Assembly (NCBI RefSeq): GCF_001866075.3
Contig: NZ_CP063356.1
Location: 762,164-826,163, forward strand
Origin: Anaerobacillus isosaccharinicus
GTDB lineage: Bacteria > Bacillota > Bacilli > Bacillales > Anaerobacillaceae
Direction of reading: 5' to 3'
Length of the DNA: 64,000 nt
Position numbers and translations under genes: made by a program. Under the pieces are notes generated by a model. The model saw only the letters and a program-made list of their open reading frames with translations, did no database searches and was not told where the DNA came from. This document shows, piece after piece, positions 18,200 to 30,559 of the stretch (the first letter of the stretch is position 1; the number at the start of each line of letters is the position of its first letter).

Positions 18200-19016
18200 T
18201 TAATTTAATATATTCTGAAAGATTTGCAATAACTCCCTCTCACCAACAGCTACTCTCTCATCCTCTTGCATAGTTGGGAAAAGTCTTAAATACGTGATAG
18301 GTTCCTTTTCTGTTATGACAGGATTGGAGTGATCCCCAGCATATAAACATAGCATACGGACTACACAAGGTCTACCACCTGAATAATTTCCTTCTCCTAT
18401 ATAGAAAAAGGAGAAGTAACTTACTAACTGTTCAGAAATGCTATTGTTATATGACGAATTGTATATATCTTTAAATTTACTGAACTTAGCATCGAGTATA
18501 ACCGTACCATTATGCCACAATGAACCTTCTTTCTTTTTAAAGAAATCTACTTTAAGATCAGGCTTCTTTTTGGCTAAAGGTGTATAAAAATATTCCCCTC
18601 GATCTTTAGATTCTTTAGCAGAATTAGCATGGTAATGATCATACCATACGTGAATAACATTTTCGTCATTCTCAAGAATGAACTTAGAACCTTCAGGTAT
18701 ACTATCCTCAAAATAATAGTTTATAATATTCTCTTTTAGACCAGAGGTTAAGGTATGCCCTAATTGTTTAAAGATATCAACAACTTTAAACAAACAATAA
18801 TACTCATATATTTGCCATGTAGGTTTTAAGACTGGGCTTAATTTTACAGTTTCTCCTTTTTGCTTCTCAATTTGCTGCATGGTTTGAAACATACTATTCA
18901 CTTTGTGGTAATGATAGTCTTTAAAGTTAGGTTTAATATAGTTTCTTTCCACATTAGTGAGAAAAGTATGGTTTAGAAAATATACAATCTTATTTTCAAA
19001 TAATTGTAATAGATTG
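18200..19016 (-). pseudogene. DUF2357/PD-(D/E)XK nuclease (McrC-like), C-terminal half, separated by inversion
   Basis: The open frame begins inside IS66 terminal sequence (GTG at 19036) and encodes about 270 native residues. It contains a PD-(D/E)XK nuclease core: KKPDLKVDFF, then VILDAKFSKFKD, giving the D and D-x-K triad of the DUF2357/PDDEXK_7 family, which pairs with McrB-like AAA ATPases. The first native residues read N-L-L-Q-L-F-E-N-K. The N-terminal half (27039-28092) ends in W-L-N-L at the matching copy of the 8-bp duplication CAATCTAT. Joining nucleotides 27039-28092 to 19008-18200 gives 1863 nt, exactly 621 codons including the stop. The break is therefore a clean IS66 insertion followed by inversion. 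As it stands the fragment lacks a native start and is presumably inactive. Confidence 0.9.
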
Positions 19017-19105
19017 GTAAGCGTCAAATACTCCACACCTTCTAATAATTACCGTGTTTTGTGATAATCACATTAACATCAATTGTTAGGAGGTTTTTTA
19101 TGTCA
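19017..19105 (+). repeat. 89-bp tandem duplication of the IS66 left end
   Basis: Bases 19017-19105 repeat 19106-19194: the GTAAGCGTCAAAT terminus through the tnpA ribosome binding site and the first codons. The junction lies at ATGTCA-GTA, where the IS terminus and the internal sequence share GTA. The other IS66 copy (28093-30541) has a single left end. Confidence 0.93.
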
Positions 19106-19188
19106 GTAAGCGTCAAATACTCCACACCTTCTAATAATTACCGTGTTTTGTGATAATCACATTAACATCAATTGTTAGGAGGTTTTTT

Positions 19189-19512
19189 ATGTCAGTAGAT
19201 GAACGTAAACAAATGTGGGAAGATCGCATCGACGCCTACAGATCCAGTGGAGTGCCAAGTGTCAAAGCTTGGTGTGAACAAAATCAAGTAGGTGTTCAAA
19301 GTATGTATAGCTGGATGAAAAGATTGGAAACTGAGCCGACTCACGTCGCTTATCCTCTTACACAATGGGTTGCCATTGATTCATCCAACTCGATTGAAGA
19401 AACAGCTACTTTAACAGTTAAGGTAGGCGATGTTTCAATCGAAATTAAAGAAGGCTTCAGCCATTCACTTTTAAATGAAGTACTTCAGGTTCTTCAATCC
19501 CATGTTAAGTAA
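19189..19512 (+). CDS. tnpA: IS66 accessory protein TnpA (copy 1)
   Basis: A 107-residue IS66 Orf1 protein with an N-terminal helix-turn-helix (RIDAYRSSGVPSVKAWCEQNQ, followed by VQSMYSWMKRL) of the transposase-8 type. It starts at ATG 19189 with TTAGGAGG eight bases upstream. The longer frame from 19150 begins in IS terminal DNA and is not used. Its 3' end overlaps tnpB by 11 bp, typical of IS66. It is required with TnpB for transposition in well-studied IS66 elements, probably as a DNA-binding helper. Confidence 0.88.
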   Translation: MSVDERKQMWEDRIDAYRSSGVPSVKAWCEQNQVGVQSMYSWMKRLETEPTHVAYPLTQWVAIDSSNSIEETATLTVKVGDVSIEIKEGFSHSLLNEVLQVLQSHVK

Positions 19513-19858
19513 AACACCTATTCAACGAGTCTATTTAGCGGCGGGTGCAACAGATCTGAGAAAGTCGATTGATGGTTTGGCAGCGATTGTTCAAATGAGT
19601 TTCCAATTGGATCCTTTCTCTTCCAATCTATTTGTGTTCTGTAATCGCAAACGAGATAAACTAAAGATCCTTCATTGGGATCATAATGGGTTTTGGTTAT
19701 ATTATCGCCGACTGGAAAAAGGCGTTTTTCAATGGCCAGATGAACAAACTACTAAGCCGCTATCGATCAGTCCTCGCCAATTCAACTGGCTCTTGGATGG
19801 ACTTCCACTTGAACAAAAACAAGCCCATCCAAAAATGAGTGCAAAATTTATCATATAG
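19502..19858 (+). CDS. tnpB: IS66 accessory protein TnpB (copy 1)
   Basis: A 118-residue IS66 Orf2-like protein starting MLSKTPIQRVYLAAGATDLR, with the family's DLRKSIDGLA and FVFCNRKRDKLKILHWDHNGFWL blocks. ATG 19502 overlaps the tnpA stop, indicating translational coupling. Role in transposition is known genetically; the biochemical function is unclear. Confidence 0.88.
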   Translation: MLSKTPIQRVYLAAGATDLRKSIDGLAAIVQMSFQLDPFSSNLFVFCNRKRDKLKILHWDHNGFWLYYRRLEKGVFQWPDEQTTKPLSISPRQFNWLLDGLPLEQKQAHPKMSAKFII

Positions 19859-29741: not shown

Positions 29742-29788
29742 ATAAATAGAATAACATATAGAGAGGTGTCGTGGTTGATCAATTCTCT

Positions 29789-30145
29789 CTATATGATAAA
29801 TTTTGCACTCATTTTTGGATGGGCTTGTTTTTGTTCAAGTGGAAGTCCATCCAAGAGCCAGTTGAATTGGCGAGGACTGATCGATAGCGGCTTAGTAGTT
29901 TGTTCATCTGGCCATTGAAAAACGCCTTTTTCCAGTCGGCGATAATATAACCAAAACCCATTATGATCCCAATGAAGGATCTTTAGTTTATCTCGTTTGC
30001 GATTACAGAACACAAATAGATTGGAAGAGAAAGGATCCAATTGGAAACTCATTTGAACAATCGCTGCCAAACCATCAATCGACTTTCTCAGATCTGTTGC
30101 ACCCGCCGCTAAATAGACTCGTTGAATAGGTGTTTTACTTAACAT
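29789..30145 (-). CDS. tnpB: IS66 accessory protein TnpB (copy 2)
   Basis: Identical to copy 1 TnpB (118 residues from the ATG overlapping the tnpA stop). It belongs to the tnpA-tnpB-tnpC transcript of this copy and is needed for transposition in characterised IS66 elements. Confidence 0.88.
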   Translation of the reverse strand: MLSKTPIQRVYLAAGATDLRKSIDGLAAIVQMSFQLDPFSSNLFVFCNRKRDKLKILHWDHNGFWLYYRRLEKGVFQWPDEQTTKPLSISPRQFNWLLDGLPLEQKQAHPKMSAKFII

Positions 30146-30458
30146 GGGATTGAAGAACCTGAAGTACTTCATTTAAAAGTGAATGGCTGAAGCCTTCTTT
30201 AATTTCGATTGAAACATCGCCTACCTTAACTGTTAAAGTAGCTGTTTCTTCAATCGAGTTGGATGAATCAATGGCAACCCATTGTGTAAGAGGATAAGCG
30301 ACGTGAGTCGGCTCAGTTTCCAATCTTTTCATCCAGCTATACATACTTTGAACACCTACTTGATTTTGTTCACACCAAGCTTTGACACTTGGCACTCCAC
30401 TGGATCTGTAGGCGTCGATGCGATCTTCCCACATTTGTTTACGTTCATCTACTGACAT
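30135..30458 (-). CDS. tnpA: IS66 accessory protein TnpA (copy 2)
   Basis: Identical to copy 1 TnpA (107 residues), with ATG at 30458 after AGGAGG. Unlike copy 1, its upstream terminal region occurs once. Confidence 0.88.
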   Translation of the reverse strand: MSVDERKQMWEDRIDAYRSSGVPSVKAWCEQNQVGVQSMYSWMKRLETEPTHVAYPLTQWVAIDSSNSIEETATLTVKVGDVSIEIKEGFSHSLLNEVLQVLQSHVK

Positions 30459-30559
30459 AAAAAACCTCCTAACAATTGATGTTAATGTGATTATCACAAA
30501 ACACGGTAATTATTAGAAGGTGTGGAGTATTTGACGCTTACAAATGTACTACTCCAAGG

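What the first reader, a model, noticed from the sequence alone, without database searches (positions are those of the whole stretch)
18200..30549. IS66-mediated inversion proven by swapped target duplications and an in-frame gene split
Seen directly: copy 1 is flanked by ATAGATTG and GTACATTT, copy 2 by CAATCTAT and AAATGTAC. Neither copy has matching flanks, but each left flank is the reverse complement of the other left flank, and likewise on the right. So each original 8-bp duplication is now divided between the two copies. Joining 27039-28092 to 19008-18200 through one duplication gives exactly 621 codons with no stop (..W-L-N-L/L-Q-L-F-E-N-K..). Two IS66 insertions in opposite orientation must have recombined and flipped 21555-28092. 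Identity of the two copies suggests a recent event that may still be reversible.
Basis: seen in the sequence. Interest (0 to 1): 0.85.

Follow-up and report, generated by a model that had tools for sequence, protein, structure and literature searches.

The report
Flipped segment between two IS66 copies
Two identical IS66 mobile elements lie in opposite directions around a 6.5-kb stretch of a bacterial chromosome, with their 8-base target repeats exchanged and the two parts of a predicted phage-defence gene (mcrC) 9 kb apart, so the stretch was likely flipped by recombination between the two elements, an ordinary kind of genome rearrangement.

Summary
IS66 copies at 19106-21554 (+) and 28093-30541 (-) are identical over 2,449 bp and their 8-bp target repeats are exchanged reciprocally. 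The other 7 of 9 copies in the genome each have a matching pair. The two mcrC parts are colinear pieces of one DUF2357/PD-(D/E)XK gene: both fall in one open frame in 10 of 10 related loci, one of them broken further downstream. Sutcliffiella (L023) shows the unflipped order mcrB-mcrC-jetD-jetA-jetB-jetC. An IS66-bounded inversion is the best reading.

(1) "Must have recombined" is not proven: one insertion plus intramolecular copy-in transposition leaves the same flanks, and so would a wrong assembly flip. (2) Identity of the copies does not date the inversion: all nine copies are identical. (3) Flipping back would leave an IS66 in mcrC.

Missed detail: copy 1 has an extra tandem 89-bp left end. 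The same 2,538-bp form sits elsewhere with its own matching 8-bp repeat, so it likely moves as a unit.

The parts
18200..19008 (-). 3' part of an mcrC-like gene (PD-(D/E)XK nuclease part)
   Evidence: open frame; Pfam PDDEXK_7, E 5.5e-05; aligns just downstream of the N part in relatives
19009..19016 (+). ATAGATTG, one half of the first 8-bp target repeat
19017..19105 (+). extra tandem copy of the IS66 left end (89 bp)
   Evidence: the same form at G000 2279476-2282013
19106..21554 (+). IS66 copy 1 (2,449 bp; ends match at 21 of 25 positions; tnpB, tnpC, and a first ORF without a Pfam hit)
21555..21562 (+). GTACATTT, one half of the second 8-bp target repeat (inverted)
21563..28084 (+). segment read as inverted
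   Evidence: swapped repeats, split gene, gene order in L023
21641..23399 (+). another IS (HTH_Tnp_1 + rve genes) inside the segment, flanked by its own 4-bp repeat TGTG
23706..25001 (+). gene upstream of mcrB, 431 aa, no Pfam hit, conserved at this place in 7 of 10 relatives
24998..27055 (+). mcrB-like gene (AAA_5)
27039..28092 (+). 5' part of the mcrC-like gene (DUF2357), including one copy of the repeat
   Evidence: Pfam DUF2357, E 4.9e-08
28085..28092 (+). CAATCTAT, other half of the first target repeat
28093..30541 (-). IS66 copy 2 (2,449 bp, no extra left end)
30542..30549 (+). AAATGTAC, other half of the second target repeat
8101..16658 (-). Wadjet jetC-jetB-jetA-jetD genes that follow mcrC in the unflipped order
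   Evidence: PADLOC JetA3/B3/C3/D3 models; synteny with L023

Best explanation
The 6.5-kb segment 21563-28084 was most likely inverted by homologous recombination between two IS66 copies that had inserted separately, in opposite orientation, one in an mcrC-like gene and one about 6.5 kb away. Steps: (1, inferred) a left-end-doubled IS66 inserted in mcrC and made the ATAGATTG repeat; (2, inferred) an ordinary IS66 inserted at the second site and made the AAATGTAC repeat; (3, inferred) a crossover within the identical 2,449 bp turned the segment round, exchanged the target repeats and carried the 5' part of mcrC, with mcrB, away from its 3' part. Shown directly: identical inverted copies, reciprocal repeats, two colinear gene parts, unflipped order in a relative. 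Predicted consequence: mcrC is non-functional because its DUF2357 part and its nuclease part are separated. That loss would come from the insertion, not from the inversion.
For: Reciprocal swap of both 8-mers, about 3e-8 by chance over all pairs. 7 of 9 copies in the genome keep a matching repeat, so simple insertion is this element's usual product here. The two mcrC parts align in order in one open frame in 10 of 10 related loci, one of which (L022) is broken further downstream, and in 18 of 18 further database proteins (20 hits less the window's own two pieces). L023 has mcrB-mcrC-jetD-jetA-jetB-jetC on one strand, the order expected if the segment is turned back. Two close insertions in opposite orientation occur elsewhere in this genome: 2223138-2225586 (-) and 2235808-2238256 (+), 10.2 kb apart, each with its own repeat. 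Exchanged target repeats were taken as a mark of recombination between two copies in Drosophila (PMC2775673, passages).
Against: The flanks do not separate this from copy-in transposition. In the Drosophila case chimeric copies were needed to settle it; here the copies are identical apart from the extra left end, so chimerism cannot be tested. No strain with the two un-exchanged insertions was found: of 7 genomes of the genus 3 have any match to the mcrB protein, the window's own and two at 31 and 38% identity, and the nearest intact mcrC relatives are 54-68% identical to the parts. No reciprocal swap was seen among 21 readable IS66 copies in five other genomes, where 6 of 21 had non-matching flanks without a partner among the copies read. 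Reads were not available.
Confidence: 0.65

Rival explanations
1. One insertion, then an intramolecular copy-in (replicative) transposition: a single left-end-doubled IS66 in mcrC attacked a second site on the same chromosome in trans with its inner left end and its right end. Replication then left two inverted copies and an inverted segment between them in one step.
For: A review of the IS6 family describes this outcome: inverted segment, original and new IS in inverted orientation, each copy with one original and one target flank (PMC7986276, passages). A label model gives the same final order, extra left end on copy 1 only, as the recombination route (I wrote the copy-in result by hand from that description). 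It needs two events rather than three.
Against: The description is for the IS6 family; I found no paper on whether IS66 does this (listings and a few passages; no paper). 7 of 9 copies here and 15 of 21 elsewhere are simple insertions with matching repeats. It needs the inner rather than the outer left end to be used.
Confidence: 0.17
2. Assembly error: the true chromosome holds two ordinary insertions with matching repeats, and the assembler joined the 6.5-kb segment the wrong way round across the identical 2.4-kb repeats.
For: Such an error would give exactly these flanks. The sequence alone cannot exclude it, and the reads and sequencing method are unknown to me. The proteins of both mcrC parts are also recorded on a contig of 5,227,226 bases, 82 more than G000, so another version of the assembly may exist.
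Against: The other 7 copies of the same 2,449 bp all have matching repeats, including the nearby inverted pair at 2.22 and 2.24 Mb, and 3 of 3 copies of a second IS that I could read have matching 4-bp repeats. An assembler that joined these repeats at random would not give that. The genome is one contig.
Confidence: 0.15
3. A programmed, reversible switch of the defence operon.
For: Inverted identical repeats around part of a defence operon.
Against: In either orientation one IS66 interrupts mcrC, so neither state gives an intact gene. The boundaries are exact IS66 insertions, and the insertion site is not conserved: no IS66 transposase within the mcrBC gene block of the 10 related loci; the one match, in L020, lies at 8033-9586, beyond mcrC.
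Confidence: 0.02

Closest known systems
IS66 family insertion sequences
   Same: tnpB (PF05717) and tnpC (PF03050 with zf-IS66, LZ and C-terminal elements), 8-bp target repeats, inverted ends. Family members with 8-bp repeats are listed in PMC3281130 and PMC10017437 (passages).
   Different: Two of nine copies carry a tandem 89-bp left end. I saw none in the 23 other-genome copies examined for a repeated left end.
IS-mediated inversion by recombination between inverted copies (the Galileo inversion in Drosophila as a documented case)
   Same: Opposite orientation and exchanged target repeats (PMC2775673, passages).
   Different: The copies are identical, so chimerism cannot be shown; no un-inverted strain is in hand.
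Intramolecular copy-in inversion (IS6/IS26 and Tn3 type)
   Same: Same final flank pattern (PMC7986276, passages).
   Different: Not shown for IS66 in anything I found.
McrBC type IV restriction
   Same: McrB-like AAA_5 protein followed by DUF2357 + PD-(D/E)XK protein, as described for McrC in PMC11090510 (passages).
   Different: The mcrC gene is in two parts here; an upstream 431-aa gene has no Pfam or PADLOC hit.

Membership tests
IS66 family | TnpC-type DDE transposase and TnpB | tested here: met
   PF03050 E 1.2e-98, PF05717 E 7.6e-42
IS66 family | 8-bp target repeats | tested here: met
   7 of 9 copies matching, the other 2 exchanged
IS66 family | terminal inverted repeats | tested here: met
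   21 of 25 positions
Inversion by recombination between two IS copies | identical copies in opposite orientation with exchanged target repeats | tested here: met
Inversion by recombination between two IS copies | chimeric copies, or a parent with two intact insertions | tested here: inconclusive
   copies identical; no close strain among 7 genomes of the genus
Copy-in intramolecular inversion | transposase shown to work by copy-in | not testable with these tools
   needs an assay; no paper found
McrBC type IV restriction | McrB-type AAA protein with DUF2357 + PD-(D/E)XK partner in an operon | tested here: met
   domains, operon in relatives; in the window the partner is split
McrBC type IV restriction | restriction activity | not testable with these tools
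   needs a phage or plasmid assay

The most novel reading that the evidence does not exclude
The IS66 itself made the inversion: the left-end-doubled element in mcrC attacked a second site with its inner left end by a copy-in route, leaving the extra 89 bp behind. Doubled left ends arise when IS66 inserts into another copy of itself at position 89 and the two collapse by recombination, giving a 2,538-bp mobile variant with two usable left ends. IS66 would then be a replicative, rearrangement-making family.
Probability: 0.12. Interest if true: 0.5.

Novelty: new member of a known kind. Interest (0 to 1): 0.25.

Why it matters
It is a clean, base-exact example of how identical IS copies reshuffle a defence island and leave a restriction gene broken, and a useful warning that exchanged target repeats alone do not tell recombination from copy-in transposition. 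The doubled left end gives a handle on how IS66, whose transposition route I found no paper on, handles its ends.

Tried and rejected
Unflipped or IS-free close strain: the genus and the family each hold only the same 7 genomes; 2 besides the window's own have a match to the mcrB protein, at 31 and 38% identity, and 2 besides the window's own have weak matches to the IS. Among 397 genomes of the order 55 have some IS match; outside the own genome the longest matches are about 67% identical, and one 391-bp piece (G066) is 83%. In the plasmid collection 19 records match at 60-80% identity, none over 80% of the element.

Identity of the two copies as a clock for the inversion: rejected, as all nine copies are identical. 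Open frames in both mcrC parts fit a recent event but do not date it.

Close spacing as evidence for local copy-in: for nine random sites a smallest gap of 8,987 bp or less occurs with P 0.117; four or more gaps of 86 kb or less with P 0.0099 (the second threshold was chosen after seeing the positions). The sites cluster, but this does not separate the routes.

Survey of IS66 flanks in other genomes: 11 genomes searched, 10 with matches, 5 used. 48 stretches were fetched, chosen by me from a list that was cut at its end. 24 (L099-L122) were dropped because the shared sequence ran past the fetched stretch, and 1 (L133) because it had no sister copy. Of 23 examined, 1 lacks a right end and 1 ends at a contig end. 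Of the 21 left, 15 match exactly and 6 do not (L134, L136, L139 with a one-base offset, L144, L145, L146); no reciprocal swap. The 6 tell against the idea that IS66 flanks are always tidy.

Origin of the 89-bp repeat: self-insertion with collapse, or slippage. The element has GTA at positions 1-3 and again at 90-92 (read by me), so a slip with 3-bp homology is as good; undecided. IS15 is described as one IS inserted in another (PMC7986276, passage).

Organism: I guessed Anaerobacillus isosaccharinicus from recall; (listing, passages) gave nothing to confirm it, and nothing here rests on it.

Full report
What is there. Two IS66 copies lie at 19106-21554 (+) and 28093-30541 (-). They are 2,449 bp long, identical, and inverted. 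TnpB and TnpC give strong Pfam matches (PF05717 E 7.6e-42, PF03050 E 1.2e-98), the first ORF gives none, and the two ends match at 21 of 25 positions. Read in the orientation of the element, the left repeat of each copy is the right repeat of the other. The chance of this from base composition is about 3e-8 over the 36 pairs of copies.

The rest of the genome. The chromosome (G000, one contig, 5,227,144 bases) holds nine full copies, all 100% identical. Seven of nine have matching 8-bp repeats; the two of this finding are the only ones that do not, and they are each other's partners. A nearby inverted pair at 2.22 and 2.24 Mb, 10.2 kb apart, has its own matching repeats at both copies. So two close, opposite insertions are possible here, and the assembly handled this repeat well in seven other places.

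The split gene. The 5' part (27039-28092) carries DUF2357 (E 4.9e-08) and the 3' part (18200-19008) carries PDDEXK_7 (E 5.5e-05); the mcrB-like neighbour carries AAA_5. In a separate-row alignment the first part ends at column 349 and the second begins at column 354 of intact relatives. In 10 of 10 related loci both parts lie in order in one open frame directly after mcrB; in one of them (L022) the frame is broken further on. In 18 of 18 further database proteins, leaving out the window's own two pieces, both parts lie in one protein; the closest are P0008 (63 and 68% identical) and P0006 (59 and 54%).

The order before. In Sutcliffiella horikoshii (L023) the genes run 434 aa, mcrB, mcrC (628 aa), jetD, jetA, jetB on one strand, followed by a jetC match. 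In the window, mcrC's 3' part is followed on the same strand by a WYL-domain gene and then jetD, jetA, jetB, jetC. Turning back 21555-28092 gives that order. This was seen in one relative of ten; in the other nine no jetA-D match lies in the stretch held.

Which route. Two routes leave the same labels: two insertions and a crossover, or one insertion and a copy-in transposition in trans (where I wrote the second result from the description in PMC7986276, passages). A study of a Drosophila inversion used chimeric copies as a further proof of recombination (PMC2775673, passages); identical copies do not allow that here. I prefer recombination because long identical inverted repeats are a standard substrate for it (established knowledge) and because simple insertion is what most IS66 copies show (7 of 9 here; 15 of 21 readable copies in five other genomes). 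Against this, 6 of those 21 have non-matching flanks without a partner among the copies read, and I found no paper on the IS66 route (listings and passages). A wrong assembly flip would also give this pattern and is not excluded.

The doubled left end. Copy 1 begins with an extra 89-bp copy of the left end (19017-19105). The same 2,538-bp sequence, letter for letter, sits at 2279476-2282013 with ATATCATC on both outer sides. So the doubled form has likely transposed as a unit at least once. A perfect 13-base palindrome, TGTGATAATCACA, lies in this end and is therefore present twice (19060-19072, 19149-19161; read from the sequence). Origin: self-insertion at position 89 followed by collapse, or slippage at a shared GTA; undecided. 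One search (IS66, left end, tandem duplication) listed one paper, which I did not read.

What it does. The insertion, not the inversion, would break mcrC: in either orientation of the segment an IS66 sits at the same place in the gene. The loss of function is predicted, not tested; in McrC the DUF2357 part stimulates McrB and is fused to the nuclease (PMC11090510, passages). The inversion is therefore better seen as a scar of identical IS copies in a defence island than as a switch.

Verdict. Observation confirmed, inversion well supported, mechanism likely but not proven, kind known. Interest is low to moderate; the doubled left end is the least expected part.

Noticed in passing
window 2941-7533: CBASS-like genes: Prok-JAB, ThiF/E2, DncV-like nucleotidyltransferase, patatin-like effector, next to Wadjet (8101-16658) and mcrBC: a defence island.
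   Followed up: partly
window 21637-23403: A second IS (HTH_Tnp_1 + rve genes) with a 4-bp repeat TGTG; three other near-identical copies in the genome (98-100%), two of them with readable matching 4-bp repeats TTAT and ATTC.
   Followed up: partly
window 30945-31465: Short ORFs, the first with an HTH_21 hit, that look like remnants of an IS3-type transposase gene.
   Followed up: no
proteins P0018 and P0020: The two mcrC parts are recorded on a contig of 5,227,226 bases, 82 longer than G000; perhaps another version of this assembly.
   Followed up: no
genome G260 (4.4 Mb, one contig): 151 matches to the IS66 TnpC protein, many in near-identical full-length copies; a heavily IS66-loaded genome.
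   Followed up: no
G017 (L134, L136) and G131 (L145, L146): IS66 copies with non-matching flanks and no reciprocal partner among the copies read; possible traces of deletions, multi-copy recombination or copy-in.
   Followed up: no
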